A program made the translations under genes and the position numbers. From the IMG/VR virus record IMGVR_UViG_3300030101_003279, positions 1 to 30,810 of that record: DNA of 30,810 nt; one strand, 5' to 3'. How positions within the stretch are numbered: the first letter of the stretch is position 1; the number at the start of each line of letters is the position of its first letter. Below are positions 1 to 30,810 of this stretch, piece after piece. The notes below the pieces were generated by a model, which was not told where the DNA came from, did no database searches, and saw nothing but the letters and a program-made list of their open reading frames with translations. Origin of the DNA: a virus.

Positions 1-14
1 GGAGACCATTCACA
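1..14. repeat. Terminal direct repeat, left copy
   Basis: The 14 bases GGAGACCATTCACA are identical to the last 14 bases of the window (30797-30810). Joining the two copies keeps one reading frame open across the junction. The repeat is therefore best read as an overlap of a circular or circularly permuted genome; a real short terminal repeat is less likely but not excluded. Confidence 0.85.
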
Positions 15-136
15 ACTTTTTATTTTCTATGAGTGGAAAACGGACGGAGTTTACTCGTAAAGCGCACAGGATGGCGCTGGCTGGCTTTGATTGTGTTTCA
101 AGTGGTGAGGTTGCGGCAAAAAATAAAACGCTTTAG
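2..136 (+). CDS. C-terminal part of a small junction-spanning protein
   Basis: This frame is open from base 2 and stops at TAG 134-136. Joined to the open frame at 30747-30810 through the 14-base overlap, it gives a protein of about 61 residues starting MTTPPRKESIRRD and ending AAKNKTL. It is basic, has no membrane segment and no domain I recognise. An internal ATG at 29-31 could serve as a start if the ends were not joined. It lies between two DNA methyltransferase genes and just upstream of the terminase genes, so a small packaging or regulatory role is possible, but that is a guess from position only. The reading through the junction is seen directly; the function is unknown. Confidence 0.6.
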   Translation, partial: ETIHNFLFSMSGKRTEFTRKAHRMALAGFDCVSSGEVAAKNKTL

Positions 137-145
137 AACTTAAAT

Positions 146-1360
146 ATGGCCAAGGAAAAGGCATCGAAAATAAATGGGATTCCGGTCTACTGTTCATACG
201 ACAGGCCGGTTGATTTGGTTGATTTGGTGGAACATCCAAGCAACCCGAACAAGCACGGCGACAAGCAGATTGCGCTACTGTCAAAAATAATAAGAAACCA
301 AGGCTGGCGGAATCCGGTCATCGTGTCGAAGCGTTCCGGTTTTATTGTTGCCGGCCATGGCAGATTGGCAGCGGCAAAGCTATTAAACGTCGAGGCCGTG
401 CCGGTTGACTACCAAGATTTTGCAAACGAGGCGGAAGAACACGCGCACCTAATAGCCGACAACCGCATTGCGGAACTGGCCGAAATAAACAGCAACGAAC
501 TGGCCGGACTGCTGCGTGATTTGGAGGGCAAGATTGATTTGGATTTGACCGGCTTTGACGAGGTAAGCCTTGACGACATTTTGACGGCAACAGAACCCGA
601 AGCTGCCGAGGTGGATGCAGAACCACAGATTGATAAGGCGGAAGAATTGCAGGCCAAATGGAAAACCGAACTTGGCCAGGTTTGGGAACTAGGCGACCAC
701 CGGCTGTTGTGTGGGGATTCCGCTAATGTTGACGGATTCAAAAAACTAATTAGCAAAAGTAAGGCAGATATAGTTTTGACAGACCCGCCCTACGGCATTT
801 CATACCAATCAAACTATAGAAAGCAAAAATTCACAAAACTAGATAACGATAATGATGTTTTTATTGATTGGATAAAACCTGCTGCTGAGAACACTAAGTC
901 TTGGTTTATATTTTTCTGTGCGTGGCAAAAAATTGACAAGTGGGTAAACGCCGGAAATCAAGTCGGCAGTCTTACGAATGTTTTAATCTGGAAAAAATTC
1001 GCTGCGATGGGTGACCTAAGAGGACAATTTGCGCCTACGTTTGAAATTGCGCTGGCCTATAACAGGGGCGGAAAGTTAAAGGAGGGAACAAGAAAGTCAG
1101 CGGTTTTTGATTGTCCAATTGAAGCGGCAATAAATTTTCAACATCCAACACAAAAGCCGGTCAAACTTATTACTGATATTTTAGATGGTTTGCCGGCTGG
1201 TTCTGTATTCGACCCTTTCCTCGGCAGCGGCACGACTTTAATTGCCTGCGAAAATTTAAAGCGCAAATGCTATGGCGTTGAACTCAACCCAGGCTACGTC
1301 GCGGTGATACTTCAACGCTGGGCGGATGCCACCGGCCGAGAGCCAAAATTATGCAGCTAA
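146..1360 (+). CDS. ParB-like domain fused to a beta-class DNA methyltransferase
   Basis: This is a 404-residue fusion. Residues about 20-130 look like a ParB/sulfiredoxin-type N-terminal domain (pattern around HPSNPNKHGDKQ and the GHGRLAAAKLL stretch). Residues about 180-400 form an S-adenosylmethionine-dependent DNA amino-methyltransferase. The catalytic DPPY lies at 213-216, HPTQKP begins at 333, and the SAM-binding DPFLGSGT lies at 356-363. The order catalytic motif before SAM motif is the beta class. DPPY is usual for N6-adenine enzymes, although N4-cytosine cannot be excluded. Such ParB-methyltransferase fusions are common in phages, often beside terminase genes as here. The stop overlaps the next start by 10 bases. 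No clear ribosome binding site precedes the ATG. The middle (about 740-1190) is visibly richer in A+T than its flanks, which fits an exchanged target-recognition segment. Confidence 0.9.
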   Translation: MAKEKASKINGIPVYCSYDRPVDLVDLVEHPSNPNKHGDKQIALLSKIIRNQGWRNPVIVSKRSGFIVAGHGRLAAAKLLNVEAVPVDYQDFANEAEEHAHLIADNRIAELAEINSNELAGLLRDLEGKIDLDLTGFDEVSLDDILTATEPEAAEVDAEPQIDKAEELQAKWKTELGQVWELGDHRLLCGDSANVDGFKKLISKSKADIVLTDPPYGISYQSNYRKQKFTKLDNDNDVFIDWIKPAAENTKSWFIFFCAWQKIDKWVNAGNQVGSLTNVLIWKKFAAMGDLRGQFAPTFEIALAYNRGGKLKEGTRKSAVFDCPIEAAINFQHPTQKPVKLITDILDGLPAGSVFDPFLGSGTTLIACENLKRKCYGVELNPGYVAVILQRWADATGREPKLCS

Positions 1361-2013
1361 CACCGGAACAGATTCAGAAGGTACAGGCCAAGAACATCGA
1401 GAACTTGGTCAAGAAAGCGGCCGAAGGCAAAACGCTGACGGCCCGCGAGTTGGAAATGCTAAACCAGCAGGCCGAACTTGCCGAGATAGCAAGGCCGGAA
1501 TTTGTAAAGACCAAGGCGTCGCTGGCCGCGCTTTTCAACTTCACAAAACAACGCCTGCAAAAGCTGTCGAAAAAAGAAGGATTCCCAAAAGCAACCCCGC
1601 AGGGATTCAACGTACAGGAGGTGACGGACTACTTGCTGGCTGAAGGAATCGACATCCACCAGGCAAGCAAGGGAACCCTGGCCGCCGAGAAAAACGGCGA
1701 GACAAAAAGCCTGACCGAACTCAAGGCGGAATTATTGCAGGAACAAATTCGTCGCCTCAAATTCCAAAACGAGGTTGAGCGCCGGCAGTATATTTCGACC
1801 GACGAAATAGCCATGGAAATCACGCGCATCATTTCACAATTCAAGTCGGTGATTTATTCAAAGATGGAATCCGAGCTGCCGCCAATATTGGAAGGAATGA
1901 CGGCGGCCGACATCCAAGTCAAAATGCGCGACGGAATTGCAGACGCCTTTGGCGTTTTAGAATCAGACAAATGGAAGAAAACTTTTGCGAAACAATCGCC
2001 CGCCGCGCAATAG
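1351..2013 (+). CDS. terS: Terminase small subunit (Nu1-like candidate)
   Basis: The 220-residue protein begins 10 bases inside the methyltransferase gene and ends 43 bases inside the large terminase gene, the usual place for a small terminase. Residues about 50-80 (KASLAALFNFTKQRLQKL and following) resemble a helix-turn-helix for binding the packaging site. Residues about 120-185 are charged, heptad-like helix rich in E, K, Q and R, suited to oligomerisation. Lambda Nu1 is 181 residues, so the length is reasonable. The role would be to recognise concatemeric phage DNA and hand it to the large subunit. The call rests on position and architecture, since small terminases are poorly conserved. 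Confidence 0.75.
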   Translation: MQLTPEQIQKVQAKNIENLVKKAAEGKTLTARELEMLNQQAELAEIARPEFVKTKASLAALFNFTKQRLQKLSKKEGFPKATPQGFNVQEVTDYLLAEGIDIHQASKGTLAAEKNGETKSLTELKAELLQEQIRRLKFQNEVERRQYISTDEIAMEITRIISQFKSVIYSKMESELPPILEGMTAADIQVKMRDGIADAFGVLESDKWKKTFAKQSPAAQ

Positions 2014-3710
2014 CGCCGCGCAGCACCGACCCGCCATGGCGCTGGGCCGAGCAGAATATTGTCGTCGATAAAACTTCGCCGTTTCCTGGCAAATTCGACG
2101 CCAACATCGCGCCTTGGACAAAGGAACCGATGGAATGCTTCGCCGACAACCGTTGCAAGGACTTGGCCATCATGTGCAGCGCCCAATCCGGCAAAACCCA
2201 AATGGTGATAACCTTGGCGGCCTGGTGCATTGCACAAGACCCTGGGCCGGCCATGTGGGTAATGGCCGCGCAGGACGAAGCCAAGACATTCGCCAGGACA
2301 AGGCTAATGCCGACGCTGGAAAACTGCGAAGCGGTTGCCGAACTATTCCCGACCGACCGGCACGCCAAGACGACCCTTGAAATAAATTTTGCCAGTATGC
2401 CGTTGGTGATTAACGGCGCCAACAGCCAAAGCAAGTTGCAATCGAAACCAATCCGGTGGCTGTTTCTGGATGAGGTGCGGAACTATCCACCAGGCGCATA
2501 CGAGATGGTGATAAAACGAACACGCGCATTTTGGAACGCCAGGCGAGTCGTCATCTCAACACCTGACCACGAAAACGACCACGTCCATCGTGCTTTCCTT
2601 GCCGGCGACCAAAGAATCTACGAGGTACTTTGTACCGAATGCGACGAACGTCACGAAATGAATTTTGATTTTATCAAATGGGACACGAACGAAGTCACCT
2701 TCGTAAATGACGAATACGACTTCGACGAACTAGCCAAGACAATCCGCTACGAGTGTCCGCATTGCATGGCAACCTTCACCGACCGGCAGGACGTCCGCAA
2801 AGCGTTCGCCATTTCCGGCAAGTGGCGGCCCACGAATGAGAAGGCGCCGTCGGAGAAAGTTTCATTTCGTTGGTCGGCCGTCCTGCCGCCATGGGTTCCC
2901 TGGCGTGATTTGGTGCAAGAATTTTTGCAGGCCAAGGCAGCCATGAAAGTCGGAACCACGGTTCCGCTTAAAGTGTTCAAGGCCGAATCGCTTGGCGTGC
3001 CGTGGATAGAAGAGATGGAAACCGATGACGAACTGCGCGAACTGGCAACGCACGACGACAAATGGCCTTGGCCCGACGAAGCGTTCCGGTTTGCCACCGT
3101 CGACGTGCAGCGAGATTTATTTTATTTGGTAGTCCGCGCTTGGGCTGCCGGCGGCGAGAGCCGGCTTGTGCATTGGTCGAAGCCGTTGACGTTTGAAAGC
3201 ATCGAGGACTTGCGGGCGCAGTACAACGTCAAGCCGCACCTGACATTCGTCGACTCCGGTTACAACGCGCAGAAGGTTTATGCGGCCTGCAAGCGTTTCG
3301 GCTTCACTTCAATAAAGGGCGCCAAGACCAAGGACTTCGCGCATAAGGTGAAGGGCGAAACCGTTCGCCGCGCTTACTCTCCCCGCGTCTATGTCGACCC
3401 AGCCGTCGGAACGAAAAGCCAAGGCAGGGTGCGGCCGGTGACTTTGTTCCATTGGTCGAACCCAACTTGCAAGGACGTGCTGGCCAACCTACGCGACGGC
3501 CGCGGCGCGAACTGGACAGTCACGCCGGATGCTGGCAACGAGTATGAACTTCAAATGTTTTCCGAGCGGCGCAGGGAACGCCACGACAAGGCCGGCCAAA
3601 CCGTTTACGAATGGCACCGCGTCGGCAAGCGTGCCAATCACCTTTGGGATTGTGAGGGGATGCAGATTGCGGCAGCGATGATGGCCAAATGCCTGGCGGA
3701 AACCGCTTGA
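1971..3710 (+). CDS. terL: Terminase large subunit, GpA family
   Basis: The 579-residue packaging motor and nuclease. Residues 69-76 (CSAQSGKT) are the ATPase Walker A-like loop and 163-169 (WLFLDEV) the Walker B strand with its catalytic glutamate. Two CxxC pairs (CTEC and CPHC, about residues 222-225 and 264-267) could bind zinc, as in other GpA proteins. The C-terminal nuclease half carries acidic residues in FATVDVQ (D378) and FVDSG (D428), fitting an RNase H-like cleavage domain. Lambda gpA is 641 residues. The gene overlaps the small subunit by 43 bases and is followed by the longest gap in the head region. The family assignment is firm; the exact nuclease residues are inferred. Confidence 0.95.
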   Translation: MEENFCETIARRAIAPRSTDPPWRWAEQNIVVDKTSPFPGKFDANIAPWTKEPMECFADNRCKDLAIMCSAQSGKTQMVITLAAWCIAQDPGPAMWVMAAQDEAKTFARTRLMPTLENCEAVAELFPTDRHAKTTLEINFASMPLVINGANSQSKLQSKPIRWLFLDEVRNYPPGAYEMVIKRTRAFWNARRVVISTPDHENDHVHRAFLAGDQRIYEVLCTECDERHEMNFDFIKWDTNEVTFVNDEYDFDELAKTIRYECPHCMATFTDRQDVRKAFAISGKWRPTNEKAPSEKVSFRWSAVLPPWVPWRDLVQEFLQAKAAMKVGTTVPLKVFKAESLGVPWIEEMETDDELRELATHDDKWPWPDEAFRFATVDVQRDLFYLVVRAWAAGGESRLVHWSKPLTFESIEDLRAQYNVKPHLTFVDSGYNAQKVYAACKRFGFTSIKGAKTKDFAHKVKGETVRRAYSPRVYVDPAVGTKSQGRVRPVTLFHWSNPTCKDVLANLRDGRGANWTVTPDAGNEYELQMFSERRRERHDKAGQTVYEWHRVGKRANHLWDCEGMQIAAAMMAKCLAETA

Positions 3711-3902
3711 CGATTTGCCGACCTAGTTTGCAATCGGTTCGCCGGCTTTTGGTTCTGCCGGCATGGTTGTTTGGACATGACAACAGCCCGCAACGGGCGC
3801 TCACTCATAACTAGAGCCGGTCGAGGTTTAGTAGCTTTCCCTCGGCCGGCTTGCTTTTTGTTTCGCTTGAGAAAACGAGCCATCCGCTAACATGGGAAGG
3901 AA
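3711..3902. other. Gene-free gap between terminase and head genes
   Basis: This 192-base stretch holds no convincing gene on either strand, although the rest of the genome is tightly packed. It contains a short perfect hairpin (GCCCG at 3786-3790 pairing CGGGC at 3794-3798, loop CAA) and a longer stem at 3814-3852 followed by a T-rich run. A candidate -35 TTGACG at 3707-3712 has no acceptable -10 partner. The gap may hold a transcription stop, a small RNA, or a packaging-related site. Confidence 0.6.
3814..3863 (+). terminator. Rho-independent terminator-like hairpin after terminase
   Basis: Bases 3814-3826 (GAGCCGGTCGAGG) can pair with 3840-3852 (CCTCGGCCGGCTT) over 13 positions with two G-U pairs and a 13-base loop. 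The stem is followed by GCTTTTTGTTT. This fits a factor-independent terminator on the + strand at the end of the packaging genes. The loop is rather long and the T run begins two bases after the stem, so it may be partial or act as an attenuator. Confidence 0.6.
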
Positions 3903-4154
3903 ATGCGGGCGGAAGGTTTATTTCTTAATTTCACAACCAGCGAAATCACCACGATTCAGACGAAGGCGAAAACGCTTTTGACTGAAGGCAAGACGCTGAT
4001 GGCATACGGCATCGGCGGCCGGAACGCCACCAAGCAGTTTACGCTGCCGATTGACCAGGTGTTGCGCGAATGCCGGTTCGCCTTAAAGAAAAAAGACCCT
4101 GCCACCTACGGTTATTTGTCGACCCGCACCTACGCCAAGTTCCGCAATGCTTAA
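3903..4154 (+). CDS. gpW-like head-tail joining protein (candidate)
   Basis: An 83-residue protein located exactly between the large terminase and the portal, the place of gene W in the lambda order A-W-B. The segment from residue 15 (EITTIQTKAKTLLTEGKTL), through a basic GIGGRNATKQF turn, to a second helix (DQVLRECRFALKKKD) matches the helix-hairpin-helix layout of gpW (68 residues in lambda). gpW plugs the portal exit after packaging and prepares it for the tail. The ATG follows the purine-rich GGGAAGGAA directly, so the ribosome site is close to the start. The gene overlaps the portal by 8 bases. The call is inferred from order and shape rather than strong similarity. Confidence 0.65.
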   Translation: MRAEGLFLNFTTSEITTIQTKAKTLLTEGKTLMAYGIGGRNATKQFTLPIDQVLRECRFALKKKDPATYGYLSTRTYAKFRNA

Positions 4155-5535
4155 AGGATTCTTGAAAAAACTCGGTTCCCTTTGGGAGCCACAATATCAA
4201 AGCAACCGGCACCGCCGGCCGCTGCGCTATCTCAATAAAGACACCAGACAGCTAATCCCGACCGGAACGCACCAGCAACTTGTCAGCGCGGGCCGCTGGT
4301 TGTTTGGCAACTTCGCACCGGTACGCGGGGCGCTATTGGAACAATGCACATATTCTGTGCAGCCATTCGTTCCGCAGTATGTCGGGAAGGATTTAGAATG
4401 GGGCGCTCAAGCTGAAGCCTGGCTGAAGGAATTCCACGGCATCATGGACATTCAAGGCCGCTGCGACTTTGAAGAGTTTCTTTACTTGGCGCTGCTGTCC
4501 ATCAAGCGCGACGGCGACGTTGGCGTTCTGCTGACCAAGACCGGCAGCGGTTATCCGGCCGTGCAGTTAATACCGGCGCACCGCATCGCCAGCAGGACAC
4601 AAGGGCCAAATGAATTTAACGGAGTCATCACCAACAAGCAGGGGCGGCCTGTCAGTTACATGATTGACGGCGAGCGAAAGGTAAGCGCCCGCGATATGGC
4701 ACTCTGTTTCTTTCCAGAGTGGGCGGACCAAGGCCGCGGCATCTCGCCGCTGTCTGCTGTTACTGGCGACTTGCAGGATGTCAAGGAACTCAGAGAATAT
4801 GAACTCAGCGCACAAAAGGCAGCCAGCAGCATCGCCCTGGTCGAACACAACGAGGACGGATACGCCGACGACAGCGAAGCCTTTATCGAACAAACCATTG
4901 ATAGCGGCAGTTTATCGACAACCCTGGAGTCGCTTGAGGGAGGGGCAATTAGATACTTCCGCGCCGGTTCTGGTAGTAAGATTGAAGTCGTAGACCGCAA
5001 CCGCCCAAGCGCCAACGCGCAGGAGTTTGAAAACACAATACTTCGCAGCGCGTTCCAGGCTATCGAATGGCCATACGACCTCAGTCTCGACCCGACGAAA
5101 ATCGGCGGCGCTGTCGTTCGCCTGGTAACAGCCAAAGCGCAGCGCACCGTCGAGAAGAACCAGCGCCTTGTCCGCAAGATTGCAAAACGGATTGACGGCT
5201 ACGCTTTAAGCAAAGCCATGAAGGCCGGCCTTCTGCCGCGACCGCAGGGCGGCGATTGGTATTCATGGCACTACCAAGGGCCGAGGAAGATTAGCGTCGA
5301 CGGTGGCCGTGATGCAGGCGCCGCCCGCGAGGATTACAAAATGGGACTGACGACCTTGCAGGAGTTGTACGCGGAACGCGGTTTGCATTGGGAAGATGAA
5401 GTCGAGAAGCGAATTAGCGAGCAGCGGTTTGTTTTAGACCTTGCCGCAAAACACGGCATCGACCCGAACCGCGTGCAATTGTTGACCCCGAACGGACTGC
5501 CGGCCGATGGCAACATACAAGGGCCAGGAAATTAA
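4147..5535 (+). CDS. Portal protein, lambda gpB family
   Basis: The 462-residue protein fits the portal family that accompanies GpA terminases (lambda gpB, 533 residues). The N-terminal region is basic and aromatic (NRHRRPLRYLNKDTRQL). It is followed by the typical core in which LIPAHRI (about residues 140-146) precedes a beta segment and CFFPEWADQGRGISPLSAV (about 188-206), a pattern common in these portals. A dodecameric ring at one capsid vertex would dock the terminase and let DNA pass. The gene overlaps gpW by 8 bases at the front and the protease gene by 29 bases at the end. The family is recognised with good confidence. Confidence 0.92.
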   Translation: MLKGFLKKLGSLWEPQYQSNRHRRPLRYLNKDTRQLIPTGTHQQLVSAGRWLFGNFAPVRGALLEQCTYSVQPFVPQYVGKDLEWGAQAEAWLKEFHGIMDIQGRCDFEEFLYLALLSIKRDGDVGVLLTKTGSGYPAVQLIPAHRIASRTQGPNEFNGVITNKQGRPVSYMIDGERKVSARDMALCFFPEWADQGRGISPLSAVTGDLQDVKELREYELSAQKAASSIALVEHNEDGYADDSEAFIEQTIDSGSLSTTLESLEGGAIRYFRAGSGSKIEVVDRNRPSANAQEFENTILRSAFQAIEWPYDLSLDPTKIGGAVVRLVTAKAQRTVEKNQRLVRKIAKRIDGYALSKAMKAGLLPRPQGGDWYSWHYQGPRKISVDGGRDAGAAREDYKMGLTTLQELYAERGLHWEDEVEKRISEQRFVLDLAAKHGIDPNRVQLLTPNGLPADGNIQGPGN

Positions 5536-6667: not shown

Positions 6668-6693
6668 AATCAACTCAACTTGTTTTTTTTGAC

Positions 6694-7080: not shown

Positions 7081-7082
7081 TA

Positions 7083-7089
7083 AAAGGAG
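7083..7089 (+). promoter_or_regulatory. Strong ribosome binding site of the capsid gene
   Basis: AAAGGAG lies 9 bases upstream of the GTG at 7099. It is one of the few near-perfect Shine-Dalgarno sequences in the window and decides the GTG as the capsid start, consistent with very high expression. Confidence 0.75.
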
Positions 7090-7098
7090 TTAAATAAC

Positions 7099-7980
7099 GT
7101 GGCCAATACACTAAATGGTATCAACCTAAGCCAGATTGCGGCTTATACATTGGAGACACTCAGCGCCGAGATGCCTGTCGTGTCTGCCTTTACAACTGAC
7201 TTTTCTGCTGACGTGGCAGATGTCGGCGAATCGGTCAGCACTCGCGTTGCTAGTGCGGTGAGCGCAGGAGATGCCGCAAGTGGCTACTCTGCCACGGACG
7301 TAACTTCGACGGCCAAGACAATTACGCTGAACAAGCACAAGCATTTCACGGCCAAATTCACCGACCTTGAAATCGCCAAGGGTGGCTTGGATATGTTGGA
7401 GCGCACTTTCGTTCGTCCTGCTGTCCACTCTGTCGTCAACGCTATGATGGATGACCTGCTGGCCTTGGTTGTGAACGCAACATACAGCAACAACACCGTC
7501 GTGACTGCCGCCAACTTTGGCGCTGATGATGTTGCTACTCTTGCTGGCGACTTGACGACCCTAAACGTGCCGCGTTCACCGCGCAGTATGGTTATCAAGC
7601 CGGCCTACTACGCCGCGCTCGCCAAGGATAACGCTATCCAGGCCAGTTACGCCTTTGGCAACCCTGGCGCCATACAGGATAACAGCATCCCCCGCGTCCA
7701 CGGGTTCGACGTGTTGGAGTATTCCGACATTCCTGCGAACTCCGAGAACCTGGAAGGTTTTGTTTGCGGCAAGGAAGCTTTAATCATCGCAGCCCGCCAG
7801 CCGGCGCTGCCGGAAAACTGGGCGGGTTCGGTCGAGTCTGTCCAAGACCCTGACAGCGGAATTACAATTCAGCTAAGGAATTGGTACGAAGGTAAAGACG
7901 GCGCTCAATACCTTACTTGCACGCTAATATATGGCGTTGCCGCTGGTACTGACAGCCTCAAGCGAATCCTTTCAGCTTAA
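7099..7980 (+). CDS. Major capsid protein
   Basis: The 293-residue protein starts with GTG behind AAAGGAG. It follows protease and scaffold candidate, the standard place of the coat gene. The sequence has the look of an HK97-fold coat: an early helix (NLSQIAAYTLETLSAEMP), an extended TITLNKHKHFTAKFTD segment like an E-loop/P-domain strand, a long helix (FVRPAVHSVVNAMMDDLLALV) and a late A-domain with VHGFDVLEYSDIP and IQLRNWYEG. Many copies would form the icosahedral shell. No separate decoration protein is evident unless the small gene at 7980 plays that role. The stop TAA and the next ATG share one base. Confidence 0.85.
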   Translation: MANTLNGINLSQIAAYTLETLSAEMPVVSAFTTDFSADVADVGESVSTRVASAVSAGDAASGYSATDVTSTAKTITLNKHKHFTAKFTDLEIAKGGLDMLERTFVRPAVHSVVNAMMDDLLALVVNATYSNNTVVTAANFGADDVATLAGDLTTLNVPRSPRSMVIKPAYYAALAKDNAIQASYAFGNPGAIQDNSIPRVHGFDVLEYSDIPANSENLEGFVCGKEALIIAARQPALPENWAGSVESVQDPDSGITIQLRNWYEGKDGAQYLTCTLIYGVAAGTDSLKRILSA

Positions 7981-8162: not shown

Positions 8163-8185
8163 TTAAGGTGGTGGATTAGGTGTTT

Positions 8186-8221
8186 GGCCGGTAGTCGCGT
8201 AAAACGGCTGCCGGCCTTTTT
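8186..8221 (+). terminator. Strong Rho-independent terminator after head genes
   Basis: Bases 8186-8197 (GGCCGGTAGTCG) pair with 8205-8216 (CGGCTGCCGGCC) over 12 positions with two G-U pairs and a 7-base loop CGTAAAA. TTTTT follows directly at 8217-8221. It sits 23 bases after a stop and 7 bases before the next start. It may lower tail-gene expression relative to capsid. Confidence 0.88.
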
Positions 8222-8227
8222 ATTGAA

Positions 8228-11071: not shown

Positions 11072-12285
11072 TGGCAACCGCGCACATGAATGTCAAAGGC
11101 CGGACGTCGCTTGACGGTTCCGGTTGGGCTGCCGGCCTCCGCAAGATGGAAGTCGGCACAAAGGGCGCCGCAGGCCGGATGGCCGCAAGCATGGCCGGCA
11201 TGGTCGGCGGTTTGTTTGCTGTTTCAGCACTCCGCAGCGCCACGATGAGAATGGTGGCCCACGCTGACGCCATCGACAAAATGGCCAAGCGAATGGAGTC
11301 GTCGACTGATACTGTCCAAAAGTTCGATTTTGCTGCCACGCAAAACGGCGCCACAATGCAAAACGTCGAATCGTCATTCATTAAAACGGCGCAAGCAATG
11401 GAAGGCGCAAGGCAAGGCTTGTCGACTTATGTGCGTGCATTTGAGGCGTTTGGCATATCAATGCAGCAGATTAAAAGCAGCACGCCGGAAGAGATATTCC
11501 TACAGATTGCAAGGGCTGTTGAAAAGGCTGGCGGCGCATTGGATAAGGCAAAGTCGTTGCAGGACATCATGGGCCGAGGTGGCAAGATGTTGGTGCCTGC
11601 TTTTGTGTCTGGATTTGCCGGGACTGCCGGAACAGCGCCGCCTTCAATTGACGTTGATTCGATTCGCCGCCTTGCAGAATTTAATGACGAACTTGACCGG
11701 TTAAAGCGCGAAATATTGCCGGGTGCAGCTTTAGCGGTAAAGGGGTTGGCCGATGTGTTTTTTGCATTCAACGCTGAATACAAAAAGGACACCATGACAT
11801 TCAAGCCGGGAGAGGCTGGCAAAGTTGGTGCCGGCGGCAAAATGCCTGCGGTAAAACAGACTGCCGGCTTTTTGGAAACGATACTTGTTGAATTAAGTAA
11901 GAACCCATTACTGCCAGATGCAGCACCTACATCATCAAAAATAAGAGTGGCACAAGACAGGGAACGGCGGCGCCTTATGAAACAAGGCGTACCGGTCAAC
12001 CTTGCCACCGGAGAACTGGTGCGCGACGACATGAACATGGACAGGGGTGTTTTCCTTGGTTCAAACGTCGGACAATTGCCGTCGTCTCAGGTAAGTGAAT
12101 CAGCAGCAGCAGCAACAGCAGGCGCCAAGTCGTTTATAAAACCAAGCCTAGCACTTAACGCATTGCAGCGAATCGGTGCGGCAGTCAGTCAATCCGCCGA
12201 CCCGATAGCCATCGAGAAGGACAACAACATCCTTTTGAAACGCATCGCCAACAACACTAAAGACATCGCAAGGAACAGCGAATAA
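11071..12285 (+). CDS. Tape measure protein (short)
   Basis: A 404-residue protein with the usual tape-measure layout: Ala/Gly/Met-rich N-terminus with a hydrophobic stretch (AASMAGMVGGLFAVSALRSATMRM, about residues 37-60), then ADAIDKMAKRMESSTDTVQKFDFAATQNG, a pattern repeated in many phage tape measures, and further helices. At about 1.5 angstrom per residue this predicts a tail near 60 nm, less than half of lambda (gpH 853 residues). A run of CAG codons (Ser-Ala-Ala-Ala near residue 347) is present. The protein would set tail length and may help DNA entry. The gene begins at a TAATG overlap and ends at another. Confidence 0.85.
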   Translation: MATAHMNVKGRTSLDGSGWAAGLRKMEVGTKGAAGRMAASMAGMVGGLFAVSALRSATMRMVAHADAIDKMAKRMESSTDTVQKFDFAATQNGATMQNVESSFIKTAQAMEGARQGLSTYVRAFEAFGISMQQIKSSTPEEIFLQIARAVEKAGGALDKAKSLQDIMGRGGKMLVPAFVSGFAGTAGTAPPSIDVDSIRRLAEFNDELDRLKREILPGAALAVKGLADVFFAFNAEYKKDTMTFKPGEAGKVGAGGKMPAVKQTAGFLETILVELSKNPLLPDAAPTSSKIRVAQDRERRRLMKQGVPVNLATGELVRDDMNMDRGVFLGSNVGQLPSSQVSESAAAATAGAKSFIKPSLALNALQRIGAAVSQSADPIAIEKDNNILLKRIANNTKDIARNSE

Positions 12286-13157: not shown

Positions 13158-13370
13158 ATGCAGGCGCCGCAAAGACTTCCCGAAACCAACACCAAAAACA
13201 GTTGGTTAAACCGTCTCCTGGCATACACCAAAAGCCTGGAGGTGCGCGGCAATAATAAAGTCAGAGTCAGCAGGGGAACCAGCGGAACAGAAATTGACGT
13301 CAAACAGCCGCGCCGGATGTCTGCAGGAGGTAGTGGCGGCACAGATGAAGGCAGAGCGGTTTGGCTGTAG
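13158..13370 (+). CDS. Small tail-region protein
   Basis: A 70-residue basic protein starting 3 bases after the previous stop and overlapping the next gene by 10 bases. It contains NSWLNRLLAYTKSLEVRGNNKVRV and a Gly/Ser-rich end (SAGGSGGTDEGRAVWL). Tight packing supports translation. No family is recognised; it may be a small tail-tip or assembly factor. Confidence 0.55.
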   Translation: MQAPQRLPETNTKNSWLNRLLAYTKSLEVRGNNKVRVSRGTSGTEIDVKQPRRMSAGGSGGTDEGRAVWL

Positions 13371-16300
13371 ATTACATCACCGGTTCCAAGACGGCTGTCA
13401 CGGCCGCCAAACTAAATCAACTCTGGGCCGAGGTGGACACAATCGCCGGCAAAGCGCTTGACGAAAAAAGCTGCCTGCTTGTTTCCGACCACACTGACCG
13501 CACCTTGTTCGGACAACCGTTTTACTTCTTCACGGCCTCAGACCACACAATAAGCGATTATACGGTGTTTCGAGGCGCCATAGGTGCAGGCAGCGGCAAA
13601 ACGGTCACAGTAAGCAACCACGACCAAGCAAGCTATGACACAGCAGCAGCAGGCGCGACAATCACGTCGACGAACACCACGAACTACTGGGCCAAGACAT
13701 CAGACACGCTAAATCTGGAGAAGTCGCTGAAAGCGCACACGCGCATTGTCGGCAGCGACACGCTTTATTTGTGGGAGGATAGGCTACCACATCCAGAGAA
13801 GGTGTTTCGCTATGCCGTGGCGGAACTGGTAATCGGCAATCACAGTGGCACGTTCACCGTCGACGACAGTTGGAACAAGTTCCAATTCTTCCGCATACAC
13901 AATCTGACGGCGACAGATGTCACGGTTAACTTTGGCAGCACGCCGCACCACACATTCACCGTCGGCAAGTTCTCGCAGAAGTGCGCCAGACGCGACTCAG
14001 TCACAAGCGGATACGATTCGACGTACAGATACGTCTGGAAGGTGAAAGCAGGCGACCCGCGGTTCATTAAATTCACAAGCTATGCCGGCAGCGTGATGCA
14101 AACCATGGAGGCCAACAACGTTACAAACCCAAGTTGGCTTTACCGTTTTTTTTCAGAGTTAAGCGAAAAAGGTTTCATTTACCTGGACAGGCACACCTGG
14201 ACAGACATCGGCAGCGACTACCAGGACGCCGGCAAGCTGCCGACGATTAGCAACAGCACGCTGGTCGGTGATTTGATTTATACCAAAGGCACGTTTTCAA
14301 AGGTGCGTAAAATCACGAGCGGCAGCGCGTTCAGCAGTAACACCTACACGCACGCCGGTTTCTCAACGCTGCCGTCGCTGCTGACCGCTCTGGGATATTC
14401 GACGTATCTGGACGACCATGACCTTGTCATCAACCAAGACACCGGCAGCTACTTGAACAACTTGGCCGGCATCACGACCAATCTCTTCGACTACCGCGAC
14501 AACTTCCGCGTGATTGATGTGGTTGACAATGATAAGGCGCTTTTGACGGCAATGCTGCTGCCTGCTTTGGGAAGCGTTTCATCTAATCGGCCAAATAACA
14601 GTGCCTTGAGAATATCAGCTTTCGAGGTGCCGGGAGATTTGCCGATAGTTTCAATTGATTACGGTGACAAGTATTCAAGCCACACGACTACACTTGGAAC
14701 GCTGGCAACCGCGTTGACCGGCTCGATGCCGATACAGAACAACCAGCAGGCCAACACACCGACAATCACTTGTATCAGCACAACAGAAGGGCCGATTTTG
14801 ACGTGGACGGAAAACTGGTATCTTGGAACAGCAACTCCAAAGACCACGCACGGGTACACGGTGTTTAATATGAACTGGCGTTCGCAGCTACACCAAGCAA
14901 TCGACAGCAACGGCCGGCTTGAATACCAACGCTTCTGGCGTCTTAACACGCACCGCAACAGCAACGCCACCGAGTTTTATTTTGCAGGCTGGCCGACGCC
15001 GCTGAAGGTTTCCGGTTCAACCATGGTTAACCGATATGACCGGATTTTTGAAGGCGGCCGCAAGGTGCGCCGGTACGGAACCAAGGACAGCGACGGCACT
15101 CACAACGACATCACGGCCGACCCTGTCGGCATATCTGGTGCAGACTTTGGTCAGGACAACATTGAAACGCTGACCGACAGCACCATCGCCACGCAGACGT
15201 CCAGCTTTGCCTTGGTGAATCCGACATTCTCAAGCGGTGACACCGACAAGGCGAATATTCCTGTCGTCGTTCCTGACGGCGCCAAGCAGTACCAAGACAA
15301 CAAAACAGACCAGACGTGGCTGAACTCAAACTTGGCCAATTTGCGATTCCCCGGCCCCGAGTACGATTGGACGACTATGGCTGGCGATGAATACATTCGT
15401 CTGAATCTATTGCGTGAACATTACAACGACTTGGTCACGCAGTGCAAAAAGGTGAAGCGCATCAGAACACTGGCCATTGATTCGGTTTATTTTGGCGAAA
15501 AAGCACTCGCGCCAAGCGAAGATACTTCGATGATAAGAGCGGCCGGCGGAATTAGTGCTTCATTGGCAATTCTACCCAAAACGGCTTATGCGGTTTTCAG
15601 AGACGCGGCCAGAATTGCAGCGTGGACTGCCGCCGGTGCAACAATCAGCGACTCGTCTGACCTACCAAACACCGTCACCCAATTCGCAAGGGTTAACCAA
15701 AAAACATTTCCGCCGTCGTTTGCACACGCAGCATATCAAAGCACGGCAGTCGAAAATCAATTTGCCGCTCTGCGCTGGGTAAAGATTACCGACGCAATAA
15801 GCGCGGCCGCTGCGCTTGGCTTCAAGTTTAGGTTTACGGCTTGGTTGCGTTCGTTGGCATACAACCCATCGACAGTAGCCGACACATCCGACACGATGAC
15901 AATGTCGACCAGCGGCGACTATGTCGGCCACGGCGAGGAACGAATGGAAACCGGTTCTAGTCCAGCAGAAGGGCCGTTTCCGCCGCCGTGCATTACCGGC
16001 GGCAGTTTGTTGCAGACGTCTGACAGTTGCACCTACGGTAAAGCCGCGAACAACTCAGGCCAACAGGGCGGCGGCATTACGGTAGAACATTACATAAACT
16101 TCACCACCAATTTGATTGAGGAAAATGTCGGCGGTGGCTTCTTTAAATATCCCTACATTATTTCAGAAAAAGCCATCACGTTGCACCTTTACGACACCAG
16201 CGTCAGCGGAACAATTGGCACGCTTTCAAAGCAACTCGTCCAAAGCGGAAGCACGCCAGCCAGCGGTTTCGTCAACAACGGCACAGCCACGACCTCAACC

Positions 16301-16393
16301 TACACGCAAGGCACTTTTAACCTCTCTGCAAGCAGCGCAACCCAACAGCACCGATACGCCTTGGAATTAGCGCACACGACCCATTCGGCCTAG
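13361..16393 (+). CDS. Large tail protein of unknown family (TTG start)
   Basis: A 1010-residue protein, the largest in the genome. The frame opens after TGA 13346-13348 and contains no ATG or GTG near the front; TTG at 13361 is the only sensible start, with AAGG at 13348-13351 nine bases upstream. The sequence is rich in T, S, N and aromatic residues, as in beta-rich virion proteins (for example NFGSTPHHTFTV and FRVIDVVDNDKALLTAML). There is no NlpC/P60 peptidase and no gpJ-like motif that I can see. By position it should form the tail tip or baseplate and contact the host. Function is inferred from place and size alone. Confidence 0.75.
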   Translation: MAVDYITGSKTAVTAAKLNQLWAEVDTIAGKALDEKSCLLVSDHTDRTLFGQPFYFFTASDHTISDYTVFRGAIGAGSGKTVTVSNHDQASYDTAAAGATITSTNTTNYWAKTSDTLNLEKSLKAHTRIVGSDTLYLWEDRLPHPEKVFRYAVAELVIGNHSGTFTVDDSWNKFQFFRIHNLTATDVTVNFGSTPHHTFTVGKFSQKCARRDSVTSGYDSTYRYVWKVKAGDPRFIKFTSYAGSVMQTMEANNVTNPSWLYRFFSELSEKGFIYLDRHTWTDIGSDYQDAGKLPTISNSTLVGDLIYTKGTFSKVRKITSGSAFSSNTYTHAGFSTLPSLLTALGYSTYLDDHDLVINQDTGSYLNNLAGITTNLFDYRDNFRVIDVVDNDKALLTAMLLPALGSVSSNRPNNSALRISAFEVPGDLPIVSIDYGDKYSSHTTTLGTLATALTGSMPIQNNQQANTPTITCISTTEGPILTWTENWYLGTATPKTTHGYTVFNMNWRSQLHQAIDSNGRLEYQRFWRLNTHRNSNATEFYFAGWPTPLKVSGSTMVNRYDRIFEGGRKVRRYGTKDSDGTHNDITADPVGISGADFGQDNIETLTDSTIATQTSSFALVNPTFSSGDTDKANIPVVVPDGAKQYQDNKTDQTWLNSNLANLRFPGPEYDWTTMAGDEYIRLNLLREHYNDLVTQCKKVKRIRTLAIDSVYFGEKALAPSEDTSMIRAAGGISASLAILPKTAYAVFRDAARIAAWTAAGATISDSSDLPNTVTQFARVNQKTFPPSFAHAAYQSTAVENQFAALRWVKITDAISAAAALGFKFRFTAWLRSLAYNPSTVADTSDTMTMSTSGDYVGHGEERMETGSSPAEGPFPPPCITGGSLLQTSDSCTYGKAANNSGQQGGGITVEHYINFTTNLIEENVGGGFFKYPYIISEKAITLHLYDTSVSGTIGTLSKQLVQSGSTPASGFVNNGTATTSTYTQGTFNLSASSATQQHRYALELAHTTHSA

Positions 16394-21542: not shown

Positions 21543-21956
21543 ATGGCGGAGCCAAGCGACAACTTCCGCGTCTCCGCTGCCGGCGAGTACCTGACCGCTG
21601 CTGAACTAACAATCCGCGGCTGGCAGGTCTGCATGTCGCCGCACCAACCGTCTTTTGATATTGCCGCCGTAAAAGGCGAGAAGTTTCACCGCGTCCAAGT
21701 CAAAACGGCAGCTAGGCCGATTATCGACAAAGGCAAGAACCTTGGCCGCTACGGGTTCGCCTGCAAACATCGCGGAACCAATTCAGCCTACACCAAGACG
21801 GATTGCGACTTCATCGTTTTTGTCGGCCTTGAACACCGTGCTTTTTTTGTGCTGCCGGTAAAGGAGGCCACATCAATCAAATACAACTGGGCGCCAGGCA
21901 GCCACAACTGTTTTTTGGCGCCGTACTACATGGCATGGGGGCAGCTAGAAAAATAA
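21543..21956 (+). CDS. PD-(D/E)XK-fold nuclease-like protein
   Basis: A 137-residue protein, starting ATG 21543 just after the lipoprotein stop. The fold is suggested by GEYLTAAELTIRGW (E15 on the first helix), a strand with SFDIAAV (D39) and a strand with RVQVKTA (Q52 and K54). The E...D...QxK pattern occurs in the restriction-endonuclease-like superfamily, where the QVKT form is common in PDDEXK_10-like proteins. An F/Y-rich C-terminal strand follows. It may cut DNA branches or foreign DNA; activity is unproven because the usual second acidic residue is Gln. Its 3' end overlaps the next gene by 22 bases. Confidence 0.65.
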   Translation: MAEPSDNFRVSAAGEYLTAAELTIRGWQVCMSPHQPSFDIAAVKGEKFHRVQVKTAARPIIDKGKNLGRYGFACKHRGTNSAYTKTDCDFIVFVGLEHRAFFVLPVKEATSIKYNWAPGSHNCFLAPYYMAWGQLEK

Positions 21957-22340: not shown

Positions 22341-22371
22341 CATGATGCGGCCGGCCCGCACGGGCAAAGAA

Positions 22372-25969: not shown

Positions 25970-26244
25970 ACCCCGAAACGATTTTAAAAGCTACTGCCGA
26001 ACATTACGGCATACCGGAGGAAAAGCTGAAGCAACGCCGACGCGGCCCTTGGAAAATATCCTGGCCGCGACTGTTGGCGATGTCGCTGGCATACGAGGAC
26101 AATACCGGCATGAAAGTCGGCGCGGCTTTTAATAGGCACTACACGGCCGTCGTATACGCCGCCAAGCGAGTCGATGCCTTATGCGAAACCGATGCGGCAT
26201 TGGCCAAAGAACGGGAACAACTGAAAGGGGTGTTGTGTGGATAA
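25966..26244 (+). CDS. Stand-alone DnaA domain IV-like DNA-binding protein
   Basis: A 92-residue protein resembling only the C-terminal DNA-binding domain of DnaA. ILKATAEHYGIPEEKLKQRRRG matches the first helices, PRLLAMSLAYED the helix that begins with P-R-xx-A-M in DnaA, and GAAFNRHYTAVVYAAKRVDAL the signature GxxFGGRDHTTVxxAxxKI. The Asp-His of the DnaA signature is replaced by His-Tyr, so base contacts may differ. There is no AAA+ ATPase part. It could bind origin sequences, recruit the host replication machinery or block host DnaA. It starts in an ATGA overlap with the resolvase. Confidence 0.8.
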   Translation: MNPETILKATAEHYGIPEEKLKQRRRGPWKISWPRLLAMSLAYEDNTGMKVGAAFNRHYTAVVYAAKRVDALCETDAALAKEREQLKGVLCG

Positions 26245-27139
26245 TCCCGAACAACTTGCCTGCCTGTCCCTCTGCACCGGCTACGGCGGAATCGAACTTG
26301 GACTTGAACGAGCTGGCGTTCCTCTGCGGCCAATCGCTTATGTGGAGAGGGAAGCATTCGCCGCAGCGAACTTGGTCGCAAAGATTGAAGCGGAACAAAT
26401 GGCTGCGGCGCCTGTCTGGACGGATGTTAAAACCTTCCCATATTCCGACTTTCACGGCCGCGTGGACATCCTGCTTGCCGGCTATCCCTGCCAACCGTTC
26501 AGCGCGGCAGGACAAAGAAAAGGCGAAGCAGACGAACGACATCTCTGGCCATTTATTGCAAGAGGAATTGCCGCTTGTCAGCCCCGACTTGTGTTCGCCG
26601 AAAACGTCGAAGGCCACTTGTCCCTTGGGATTGAAGACGTCTTTAGCGACCTGGGCCGAATGGGTTACCAGTACACGGCAGGATTATTTAGCGCGGAGGA
26701 AGTCGGCGCCAGCCACCGGAGGAAACGGCTGTTCTGGCTCGCGGTGGACAACTCCTGCCGCGAGGGATTGGAAGGACTCAAGCGGGATGGCAACAACCCG
26801 CAGCGATGGCCGGAACAGATTAGACCAGTTGCCGCGCCAGGTTTTTGCCAACACGAATGGGAGGAACCCCGAACGGTGGCCGACACCGGCGAGCGGGACA
26901 AGCAGCGGCGGGCCGCACGGGCTGGACGGCGGCAGCGGGGCGAGGTCGATGTTGCCGCCGGAAATGAAGCAAAGCAGCGGCAAACTGAATCCGAACTGGG
27001 TCGAACAACTTATGGGACTCGATGTCGGCCAGACGCAACTGCCAACCGAGTGGACAGACTGCGATTACTCGGCAACGGAGTCGTCCCGCAAACAGCAGCA
27101 AAGGCATGGGTGACGTTATGGGAGAGATTGAACAACTAA
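26237..27139 (+). CDS. C5-cytosine DNA methyltransferase
   Basis: A 300-residue enzyme starting with GTG at 26237, 8 bases inside the previous gene. Motif I is LSLCTGYGGIELGLERAG (about residues 10-27), motif IV GYPCQPFSAAG with the catalytic Cys85, motif VI ENV (E122), motif VIII HRRKRLFWLA (about 161-170) and motif X RLLGNGVVPQTAA near the end. All key motifs are present, so activity is likely. It is shorter than bacterial enzymes (about 330-470 residues); residues about 175-260 are low in recognisable structure. No partner endonuclease is adjacent. A second open frame runs through the same DNA (see 26745-27113). The target sequence is unknown. Confidence 0.9.
   Translation: MDNPEQLACLSLCTGYGGIELGLERAGVPLRPIAYVEREAFAAANLVAKIEAEQMAAAPVWTDVKTFPYSDFHGRVDILLAGYPCQPFSAAGQRKGEADERHLWPFIARGIAACQPRLVFAENVEGHLSLGIEDVFSDLGRMGYQYTAGLFSAEEVGASHRRKRLFWLAVDNSCREGLEGLKRDGNNPQRWPEQIRPVAAPGFCQHEWEEPRTVADTGERDKQRRAARAGRRQRGEVDVAAGNEAKQRQTESELGRTTYGTRCRPDATANRVDRLRLLGNGVVPQTAAKAWVTLWERLNN
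26745..27113 (+). other. Overlapping frame with methyltransferase-like C-terminal sequence
   Basis: In the frame +1 to the C5 methyltransferase, the DNA is open from 26181 to TGA 27111-27113. From 26745 it encodes WTTPAARDWKDSSG, WPTPASGTSSGGPHGLDGG, KLNPNWVEQLMGL and a final QQQRHG. Such peptides recur in phage methyltransferase-region proteins that I remember with the form PTPxARDWK and LNPxWVEWLMG. The other frame here reads TESELGR, matching the EPxVGRVADG form. Both readings look natural. No start codon with a ribosome site marks an independent gene, so a frameshift product, an overprinted protein or a mere shadow are all possible. Confidence 0.4.
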
Positions 27140-29431: not shown

Positions 29432-29706
29432 ACCACCGGCCGGCAGTATTTGTGGACGTTGACGGCACGCTGCTGCTGCATCGCAGCAAGCGCATCAACA
29501 AGCAACTGCTGGGCAGGATAGAGGAACGGCAGGGCAAGGTGGACTTTGTGCTGTGGTCGGCCCGTGGCCGTAAGTATGCGGAGACATTTGCTAGAACTGC
29601 GGGCATTGAGGATTTATTCGTGGCAATCGTACCCAAACCGACGTGCATTGTGGACGACCTTGGCAGCGGTTGGGATAGGTGCATAGCAATTAACGCTTTT
29701 GAATGA
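29413..29706 (+). CDS. HAD-superfamily phosphatase-like protein
   Basis: A 97-residue protein with the HAD motifs. FVDVDGTLL at 13-21 carries the nucleophile Asp15 and acid Asp17, LWSARG at 47-52 gives Ser49, and PKPTCIVDD at 74-82 gives Lys75 and Asp81-82. It has no cap domain, so it is one of the smallest HAD enzymes. Phages use such proteins as nucleotide or DNA-end phosphatases (for example in kinase-phosphatase repair), but the substrate here is unknown. It starts within the previous gene and overlaps the next by 8 bases. Confidence 0.8.
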   Translation: MERRKLNHRPAVFVDVDGTLLLHRSKRINKQLLGRIEERQGKVDFVLWSARGRKYAETFARTAGIEDLFVAIVPKPTCIVDDLGSGWDRCIAINAFE

Positions 29707-30106
29707 AGCAGCAGACAGCCCGCAAGACCTGGCTTGCCTCTACTTTGTCGGGGCGGTCATCGAGCAGGCTGTACGCGATTGGAGGCTGGCCAGGCGGATT
29801 GGCTTCATTGACAGGAGCGGAGAAGTGAATGGTGACATGATACAGGGATATTATCGGAACAGCAGCAATTACAAGCTGCCGACGGCATTCGATGGGCCGG
29901 CCGACATCGAGACGCTGGCCAGTTTCTTCAATCGCGGTGGCCTGGAAGTCTGGCTTCGCTTTGCCGGCTTTAACGTGGACGCCGATACGATAATTGCCGG
30001 GTTAGAGAAAGTTACGGTCGTTAAGCCTAAAATCGGCCACCTACTCAAATCGGAACACGAACAGAGCGGGAATTATTACGCCGACATGGAGTGGCGGACG
30101 TTATGA
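29699..30106 (+). CDS. Hypothetical protein (TTG start)
   Basis: The 135-residue frame begins with TTG at 29699, overlapping the preceding stop. An ATG at 29703 belongs to a frame that closes after about 40 codons. The protein is helical at the front (QDLACLYFVGAVIEQAVRDWRLARR) with a Phe/Tyr-rich middle (GDMIQGYYRNSSNYKLPTAFDG). No family is recognised. The end overlaps the methyltransferase start in ATGA fashion. Confidence 0.6.
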   Translation: MNEAADSPQDLACLYFVGAVIEQAVRDWRLARRIGFIDRSGEVNGDMIQGYYRNSSNYKLPTAFDGPADIETLASFFNRGGLEVWLRFAGFNVDADTIIAGLEKVTVVKPKIGHLLKSEHEQSGNYYADMEWRTL

Positions 30107-30750
30107 ACCATTACTATCAAGATTCAGCGGTTACAATTTACAACGGGGATTGCAGGCAAATTCTGCCGGCGCTTGGTGAATTTGATTTATTACTGACCGA
30201 CCCTCCCTATGGGATTGGAGCCGATAAAAATAAAAGGGCGAACAAAAAACACGGCAAAGCAAAAGTGGCGTCTACTGATTACGGCGCTGGTAATTGGGAT
30301 GATTCAATTGTTGAATTTTGGTTAATCGCACAAGCAATAGCAAAGTCTAAAAACCAAATTATTTTTGGCGGCAACTATTATGATTTGCCACCTTCTCCTT
30401 GTTGGTTGGTTTGGGATAAGCAAAACGGAGACAACAATTATGCTGACTGCGAACTTGCTTGGACTTCTTACTCATACGCGGTTCGTATGCGCTCACATTT
30501 ATGGCACGGAATGTTGAGAAAAGATAAAGAACAACGATTCCACCCAACGCAAAAGCCGTTGGAAATTATGACGTGGGCGCTGACATTTGCCGGCGAGGAT
30601 GCCAAAACAATTATTGACCCGTTTGCCGGTTCAGGAACCACAGGCAGAGCGGCAAAAGATTTAGGACGCCAAGCCGTTTTAATAGAACGCGAAGAAAAGT
30701 ATTGCGAAATTGCAGCCAAGCGAATGGCGCAGGAGGTTCTACCGTTATGA
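30103..30750 (+). CDS. DNA amino-methyltransferase, beta class (adenine-type)
   Basis: ATG 30103 (ATGA overlap) is preferred over GTG 30091 and gives 215 residues. LLLTDPPYGIG has DPPY at 33-36, HPTQKP begins at 147, and DPFAGSGT lies at 172-179. Catalytic motif before SAM motif marks the beta class. DPPY suggests N6-adenine. It lacks the ParB domain of the other enzyme at 146-1360, but both share HPTQKP and the same motif order. The segment about 30190-30540 is clearly AT-richer than neighbours. No restriction partner is adjacent. The target is unknown. Confidence 0.9.
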   Translation: MNHYYQDSAVTIYNGDCRQILPALGEFDLLLTDPPYGIGADKNKRANKKHGKAKVASTDYGAGNWDDSIVEFWLIAQAIAKSKNQIIFGGNYYDLPPSPCWLVWDKQNGDNNYADCELAWTSYSYAVRMRSHLWHGMLRKDKEQRFHPTQKPLEIMTWALTFAGEDAKTIIDPFAGSGTTGRAAKDLGRQAVLIEREEKYCEIAAKRMAQEVLPL

Positions 30751-30810
30751 CCACCCCCCCCCGCAAGGAATCTATTAGGCGCGACAGCTTCACGGAGGAG
30801 ACCATTCACA
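30747..30810 (+). CDS. N-terminal part of the junction-spanning small protein
   Basis: ATG 30747 overlaps the preceding stop (ATGA) and the frame is open to the end of the window. It encodes MTTPPRKESIRRDSFTEETIH. With the 14-base overlap removed, it continues at base 15 to the stop at 134-136, giving about 61 residues. Codons 3-6 lie in a run of nine C (30754-30762). The close coupling to the methyltransferase and the continuous frame support a real gene. Confidence 0.65.
   Translation, partial: MTTPPRKESIRRDSFTEETIH
30797..30810. repeat. Terminal direct repeat, right copy
   Basis: Identical to bases 1-14; see the left copy. Its presence and the open frame across the join indicate that the window is a whole circular or circularly permuted genome. 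Confidence 0.85.

What the first reader, a model, noticed from the sequence alone, without database searches (positions are those of the whole stretch)
1..30810. No GATC tetramer in the whole genome
Reading the whole window by eye I found no GATC, while the related tetramers GTAC, CATG, TCGA, CTAG, AGCT and GGCC are all present and GGCC is common. At random about 120 GATC would be expected in 30.8 kb, so even a few missed copies would leave strong avoidance. Known cause in phages: pressure from host enzymes that cut GATC (MboI/DpnII/Sau3AI type, or DpnI type on methylated GATC). Inference: the host, or several hosts, carry GATC-specific defence, and this phage escaped by losing the sites rather than by methylating them. 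It also narrows the search for the host.
Basis: partly seen in the sequence, partly recalled or inferred. Interest (0 to 1): 0.82.

Follow-up and report, generated by a model that had tools for sequence, protein, structure and literature searches.

The report
Phage genome stripped of restriction sites
This virus of (probably) Verrucomicrobiota bacteria has lost every GATC and nearly every copy of several other short symmetric DNA words that bacterial restriction enzymes cut, and a close sister phage shows a partly mirror-image pattern; the escape strategy is known, but this is an unusually clear natural experiment of it.

Summary
In detail: 0 GATC in 30,810 bases, against 84 (order-2 Markov), 117 (base composition) or 87 (synonymous-codon shuffle) expected. 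It is the most depleted of all 256 tetramers. It is incomplete, because GATC is the strongest of a set. The window also nearly lacks GGWCC (1/41), CCSGG (6/63), CYCGRG (1/23), GWGCWC (0/18), RCATGY (2/15) and CASTG (7/45). Matched non-palindromic words show almost no such losses. The phage's GATC-free sister contigs share most of this. A sister lineage (92% TerL identity, in one case from the same sample) has GATC and CASTG at near-normal frequency but has purged CCWGG (0/27, 1/41), which the window keeps (82/70). A 3-kb window segment apparently imported from that lineage has lost all its GATC but still carries vestigial CASTG/CCSGG sites at identical positions. This fits site elimination driven by Type II restriction-modification, with different enzyme sets in different lineages, and fits mismatch-repair or self-nuclease explanations poorly. 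The likely host phylum is Verrucomicrobiota (only cultured MCP relative: phage P8625), where DpnII-type and MvaI/BcnI-type enzymes occur. No host strain was identified. The phenomenon is known (phiX174; Rusinov 2018); the partly reciprocal pattern and the recombination scar are the new parts.

The parts
1..30810 (.). Whole phage genome without any GATC; also nearly free of GGWCC, CCSGG, CASTG, CYCGRG, GWGCWC, GKGCMC, RGGCCY, RCATGY, SAGCTS
146..1360 (+). ParB-N + N6/N4 DNA methyltransferase (phrog_498; PF01555), next to the terminase; counterpart in Verrucomicrobia phage P8625 CDS3 (30% identity)
26237..27139 (+). C5-cytosine DNA methyltransferase (PF00145), specificity unknown
30091..30750 (+). 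Small N6/N4 DNA methyltransferase (PF01555), specificity unknown
13361..16393 (+). Tape-measure-sized gene apparently imported from the GATC-bearing sister lineage: about 90% nt identical to G007, about 55% to own sister G004; GATC fully purged, vestigial CASTG at 13492, 13843, 15440, 15468 and CCSGG at 14630, 15350 shared in position with G007
11471..11971 (.). Second stretch closer to G007 (0.85) than to G004 (0.76), holding three of the six CCSGG sites (11618, 11719, 11806; the last two shared with G007)
4725..4729 (+). The only GGWCC in the window (GGACC)
21543..21956 (+). PDDEXK_5-type nuclease-like gene; examined as a possible self-encoded GATC nuclease, no support
1971..3710 (+). Terminase large subunit, used to find relatives and build the tree
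7099..7980 (+). Major capsid protein; only match in 50,697 phage records is Verrucomicrobia phage P8625 (36%)
1..14 (.). 14-bp end sequence GGAGACCATTCACA, repeated at 30797-30810; conserved start point of relatives' contigs

Best explanation
The phage lineage has been purged of GATC, and of several other short palindromes, by long exposure to hosts carrying orthodox Type II restriction-modification systems. Each unmodified site risked cleavage on entry, so mutants that lost sites, mostly by synonymous changes, were favoured until none remained. Sister lineages have met different enzyme sets and therefore lack different sites; a site returns toward its random frequency when the pressure ends. 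Shown: the absence, its multi-site nature, the synonymous route, and the lineage-specific sets. Inferred: the enzymes themselves, the direction of the segment transfer, and the host (Verrucomicrobiota).
For: Zero GATC against 84-117 expected and against 87 in synonymous-codon shuffles. Codon context: Ile after a codon ending in G uses ATC/ATT/ATA 0/67/28, elsewhere 186/139/65; Asp before C uses GAT/GAC 0/79, elsewhere 185/319. Other Type II-like palindromes are lost while matched non-palindromes are not: 7 of 359 palindromic patterns vs 1 of 404 non-palindromic in the window, 13-14 vs 0-1 in relatives G011/G020. Lineage-specific sets: window GATC 0/87, CASTG 7/45, CCWGG 82/70; sister G005/G007 GATC 34/43 and 41/56, CASTG 21/21 and 37/32, CCWGG 0/27 and 1/41; G009 GATC 0/64, GGYRCC 0/19, GRCGYC 1/23; G011/G020 CTNAG 0/64 and 0/73. 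At homologous positions, 0 of 30 G005 GATC are kept in the window (21 with the same amino acids) and 0 of 27 window CCWGG are kept in G005, while 54 of 76 GCGC are kept. In the apparently imported tape-measure segment all 8 G007 GATC in the aligned region are gone but 4 of 13 CASTG and 4 of 4 CCSGG persist at the same positions; 11 of 13 residual CASTG/CCSGG sites of the window lie in 11.4-16.4 kb (binomial p about 1e-7; interval chosen after seeing the data). The GATC-bearing lineage nests within the GATC-free clade, fork support 92/89. DpnII-family enzymes occur in 9 of 289 sampled Verrucomicrobiota genomes, six next to a D12 methyltransferase; MvaI/BcnI family over cut-off in 15 of 289. Independent precedent: site avoidance is common in non-temperate phages, and GATC has CB < 1 in all 46 phages whose hosts carry a cognate enzyme (PMC6286503).
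Against: No host strain, cognate restriction gene or methylome is known, so causation is inferred. The host phylum rests on gene similarity (MCP 36% to P8625, TerL 35-45% to three MAG contigs, two of them named Verrucomicrobiales); no convincing CRISPR spacer was found in one half of the window. Depletion of the non-palindromic GAGC (76 against 170) is not explained by an orthodox palindromic enzyme. Some depleted degenerate words (RGGCCY, GKGCMC, SAGCTS) overlap or have no prototype enzyme I can name with confidence, and the palindrome counts overlap one another.
Confidence: 0.85

Rival explanations
1. Methyl-directed mismatch repair (Dam/MutHLS) or MutH nicking of unmethylated GATC selects against GATC, as proposed for enterobacteriophages such as phiX174.
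For: phiX174 is entirely GATC-free and restoring sites lowers its mutation rate (PMC5014478).
Against: Mismatch repair would touch GATC only, yet GGWCC, CCSGG, CASTG, CYCGRG, GWGCWC and others are purged too, and a sister lineage has GATC back but lacks CCWGG. The MutH/Sau3AI family is in only 3 of 289 sampled Verrucomicrobiota genomes.
Confidence: 0.05
2. The phage's own nuclease (for example the PDDEXK_5 gene 21543-21956) cuts GATC to degrade host DNA and so forbids the site in the phage.
For: A PDDEXK-fold nuclease gene is present in all clade genomes whose replication half is held.
Against: Genomes with 64-70% identical copies of this gene still have 22-25 GATC (G011, G015, G020). It explains neither the other purged palindromes nor the reciprocal pattern in the sister lineage. 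The replication half of the GATC-bearing lineage is not in hand, so absence there is untested.
Confidence: 0.04
3. Methyl-dependent defence (DpnI type) plus GATC methylation, by the phage's or the host's methyltransferase, removes GATC.
For: Three methyltransferase genes lie in the window.
Against: None can be assigned GATC specificity. No D12 (Dam-type) methyltransferase was found in 20 relatives' records, though many are fragments. The other purged words are typical orthodox Type II sites.
Confidence: 0.06
4. Composition, codon usage or assembly artefact.
For: None found.
Against: Survives synonymous-codon shuffling. Seen in contigs from many samples. GATC-bearing and GATC-free relatives come from one sample (3300030106, L005 and L009).
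Confidence: 0.01

Closest known systems
Restriction-site avoidance in non-temperate dsDNA phages (Rusinov et al. 2018, PMC6286503)
   Same: Elimination (CB < 0.1) of palindromic Type II sites; GATC is one of the sites most consistently avoided when the host has an enzyme
   Different: There single phage-site pairs with known hosts; here a whole clade with about ten purged words, lineage-specific sets and a partly reciprocal pattern between close sisters, host strain unknown
GATC-free phiX174 (PMC5014478); phage T7 has few GATC (from my own knowledge)
   Same: Complete or near-complete loss of GATC
   Different: Linked to Dam/MutHLS in E. coli; only GATC is discussed there
Verrucomicrobia phage P8625 (KP792622)
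   Same: Related capsid (36%), portal (28%), terminase (24%) and ParB-methyltransferase (30%); same order methylase-terminase-portal-protease-capsid; also purges sites (GTAC 0/72, GGNCC 2/62)
   Different: GATC is not avoided (187 observed, 162 expected in coding sequence); its purged set differs
Phage-encoded protective methyltransferases (lactococcal 936-type phages, PMC4190342, from its title and abstract)
   Same: The window also encodes DNA methyltransferases
   Different: Specificities here unknown; site loss rather than methylation accounts for GATC

Membership tests
Restriction-site elimination (anti-restriction by site loss) | Observed/expected of a palindromic site below about 0.1 with expected count of at least 15 | tested here: met
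   GATC 0/87, GGWCC 1/41, CCSGG 6/63, CYCGRG 1/23, GWGCWC 0/18
Restriction-site elimination (anti-restriction by site loss) | Palindromes, not matched non-palindromic words, are lost | tested here: met
   7/359 vs 1/404 in the window, 13/332 vs 0/405 in G011, 14/349 vs 1/408 in G020; exception GAGC
Restriction-site elimination (anti-restriction by site loss) | Loss acts on DNA, proteins unchanged | tested here: met
   21 of 30 lost GATC with the same amino acids; codon-context data
Restriction-site elimination (anti-restriction by site loss) | Host carries the cognate restriction enzyme | tested here: inconclusive
   Host strain unknown; DpnII family in 9/289 and MvaI_BcnI over cut-off in 15/289 Verrucomicrobiota genomes
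P8625-like phages of Verrucomicrobiota | Shared capsid, portal, terminase and adjacent ParB-methyltransferase in the same order | tested here: met
   24-36% identity, same order; distant, so not the same genus
Dam/MutHLS-driven GATC counter-selection | Avoidance limited to GATC | tested here: not met
   Several other palindromes purged

The most novel reading that the evidence does not exclude
Co-occurring sister phages form restriction types with partly reciprocal site sets (GATC, CASTG and CCSGG lost in one, CCWGG lost in the other) that partition hosts by their R-M systems. Genes exchanged between the types are then purged site by site in a fixed order (GATC first, CASTG next, CCSGG last), giving a clock for restriction pressure in nature.
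Probability: 0.4. Interest if true: 0.65.

Novelty: new member of a known kind. Interest (0 to 1): 0.5.

Why it matters
Loss of restriction sites is a textbook escape route, but how fast sites are lost, regained, and re-purged after gene exchange is rarely visible. Here closely related phages, in one case from one sample, lack different sites, and a segment apparently imported from the other type has lost all its GATC while keeping other forbidden sites as vestiges. That makes strength and order of restriction pressure measurable in uncultivated phages, and gives a read-out of which enzymes their hosts carry.

Tried and rejected
Near-DNA search of phage records: no match. A D12/Dam gene in 20 relatives' records to explain the GATC-bearing lineage: none. 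PF01555 methyltransferase as the correlate: only one of 20 records (G017), so no link. The relatives' C5 methyltransferase as the reason CCWGG is kept: rejected, because genomes without it (G009, G015, G020) keep CCWGG too. CRISPR spacers for 1-15,400 in 388 Verrucomicrobiota genomes: only methyltransferase-gene similarity and short chance-like matches; the second half was not run (the first attempt with the full window exceeded the length limit). PDB match for the PDDEXK gene: none. The first 6.2 kb of G017 (which with the adjoining fibre gene holds all 33 of its GATC) was suspected to be host DNA; it encodes an integrase-like and other phage-like genes, so it is another phage joined at the fibre gene, by recombination or assembly. 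A literature search for a reciprocal site pattern between sister phages found nothing specific.

Full report
CHECK. The window holds no GATC. Expected counts are 83.6 from the trinucleotides, 85.0 from dinucleotides and 116.7 from base composition; z = -11.9 is the lowest of 256 tetramers. Shuffling synonymous codons across the predicted genes (93% of the sequence), which keeps all proteins and codon usage, gives 86.8 expected and z = -10.4. The route is visible in codon context: after a codon ending in G, isoleucine is ATC/ATT/ATA 0/67/28, elsewhere 186/139/65; before a codon starting with C, aspartate is GAT/GAC 0/79, elsewhere 185/319. So it is DNA-level selection, not composition or codon bias.

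WHAT THE WINDOW IS. An IMG/VR virus record: a tailed-phage genome with terminase, portal, protease and capsid genes, fibre with an S74 chaperone domain, exonuclease, Holliday junction resolvase-like and primase-helicase genes, and three DNA methyltransferases: ParB-N6/N4 at 146-1360, C5 at 26237-27139, N6/N4 at 30091-30750. I noted no integrase among the searched genes. Both ends carry GGAGACCATTCACA, and many relatives' contigs begin at the same point, so the ends look like fixed physical ends and the genome near complete. The capsid protein matches only Verrucomicrobia phage P8625 in 50,697 phage records; P8625 shares the order methylase-terminase-portal-protease-capsid. The three terminase matches in 84,980 genomes are two Verrucomicrobiales MAGs and one unnamed bacterial MAG. 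Verrucomicrobiota is the likely host phylum (my estimate about 0.75).

GATC IS ONE OF A SET. A both-strand Markov scan, a palindrome scan with codon shuffling and a version with matched non-palindromic controls agree. In the window, GGWCC is 1/41, CCSGG 6/63, CYCGRG 1/23, GWGCWC 0/18, GKGCMC 0/20, RGGCCY 0/25, RCATGY 2/15, CASTG 7/45, SAGCTS 3/33. From my own knowledge these include the sites of AvaII, BcnI/NciI, AvaI, HgiAI, NspI and TspRI. Under strict joint criteria 7 of 359 palindromic but only 1 of 404 non-palindromic patterns are depleted in the window, 13 vs 0 in G011 and 14 vs 1 in G020; most unrelated control contigs show 0-4. Pattern counts overlap and are not independent tests.

LINEAGE-SPECIFIC SETS. 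Eight contigs with 97-98% identical TerL (L001, L002, L004-L008, L025) are GATC-free; L003 has three. The 90% lineage (G009; the phage part of G017) is GATC-free and additionally lacks GGYRCC and GRCGYC. The 80-83% lineages keep about 0.2-0.3 of expected GATC, and G011/G020 lack CTNAG entirely. The 49% relative L030 keeps GATC (62/74) but lacks ACGT, GTAC, CCWGG, GGYRCC and RGCGCY. L032/L033 look normal for most motifs. P8625 has normal GATC but lacks GTAC (0/72) and GGNCC (2/62). More distant phages found through the RuvC-like protein have GATC at 0.8-2.2 of expectation.

THE SISTER LINEAGE. G005/G007 (TerL 92%, about 81-83% nt) have GATC 34/43 and 41/56 and CASTG 21/21 and 37/32, but CCWGG 0/27 and 1/41, which the window keeps at 82/70. 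CCSGG is intermediate there (9/16, 17/30), so the pattern is reciprocal only in part. GATC-bearing L009 and GATC-free L005 come from one sample. In codon alignment, none of 30 G005 GATC sites survives in the window (21 of them differ by one base, 21 keep the amino acids) and none of 27 window CCWGG sites survives in G005, while 54 of 76 GCGC are conserved; six of nine G005 CCSGG sites are CCWGG in the window. In the TerL tree the GATC-bearing group sits inside the GATC-free clade (100/99 for the group, 92/89 for its union with the window's group, 99/100 for the wider clade), so regain after relaxed pressure is more economical than repeated loss, though a single-gene tree in recombining phages is weak evidence.

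A SCAR OF GENE EXCHANGE. The window is about 90% identical to its sister G004 in most structural genes and about 82% to G007, but in the tape-measure gene (13.4-16.4 kb) it is about 90% identical to G007 and only 50-58% to G004. In 11.4-16.4 kb, all 8 GATC of G007 are gone in the window (single changes in most), whereas 4 of 13 CASTG and 4 of 4 CCSGG remain at identical positions, and 11 of the window's 13 residual CASTG/CCSGG sites lie in this sixth of the genome (p about 1e-7; interval chosen after seeing the data). The simplest reading is import from the tolerant lineage followed by purging, GATC first. Transfer the other way would need many sites gained within 10% divergence and leaves the shared vestiges unexplained. 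L003 may be a younger case: about 1 kb is 95% like G005 and still holds GATC. Contig chimerism cannot be excluded for L003 and G006.

MECHANISM. Orthodox Type II restriction explains palindromes, several at once, different sets in sisters, and synonymous loss. Mismatch repair explains GATC only; MutH/Sau3AI-family genes are in 3 of 289 sampled Verrucomicrobiota genomes. A phage nuclease would not explain the other sites. DpnII-family genes are in 9 of 289, six beside a D12 methyltransferase, and MvaI/BcnI-family in 15 of 289 over the cut-off, so suitable enzymes exist in the phylum, though no host is tied to this phage. The three phage methyltransferases may protect other sites; their motifs are unknown.

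KNOWN OR NEW. Site elimination is known: phiX174 has no GATC (PMC5014478); in a survey, eliminated sites were 3.9% of all phage-site pairs and 7.1% for Type II (PMC6286503). I file this as a new, unusually informative member of a known kind.

Noticed in passing
window 1-14 and 30797-30810: Identical 14-bp ends GGAGACCATTCACA; G009 has GGTGACCATTCCCG at both ends and about ten other contigs start at the same spot upstream of the small terminase gene. Looks like a fixed physical genome end (perhaps filled-in cohesive ends).
   Followed up: partly
window 1-30810: GAGC/GCTC, a non-palindromic word, is about half as frequent as expected (76 vs 170) in the window and its sisters, and in G005/G007, but not in the G009 lineage. 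No explanation; a Type IIS or III specificity is possible.
   Followed up: partly
window 146-1360: The ParB-methyltransferase sits between the genome end and the small terminase; sisters such as L003-L007 and L009 start directly before the terminase gene without it, so it is a variable insertion at the end.
   Followed up: partly
window 22291-22752: RlpA-like (DPBB) lytic transglycosylase gene in the phage, an unusual possible lysis or host-wall gene.
   Followed up: no
window 25966-26244: Small protein with a DnaA C-terminal helix-turn-helix domain, perhaps binding DnaA boxes.
   Followed up: no
L048:1-6200 (G017): Contig G017 joins a GATC-free phage to 6.2 kb of another phage with an integrase-like gene, many GATC and a PDDEXK gene, the junction lying in the tail-fibre gene: recombination or chimeric assembly.
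   Followed up: partly
L039 (G006): Contig with no GATC in 1-10065 and 31 in the rest; the left part resembles GATC-free G004, the right part is about 100% identical to GATC-bearing G007.
   Followed up: partly
L156 (P8625): The cultured Verrucomicrobia phage has zero GTAC (72 expected) and almost no GGNCC (2 of 62).
   Followed up: partly
L030: Distant relative lacks ACGT, GTAC, CCWGG, GGWCC, GGYRCC and RGCGCY all at once.
   Followed up: no
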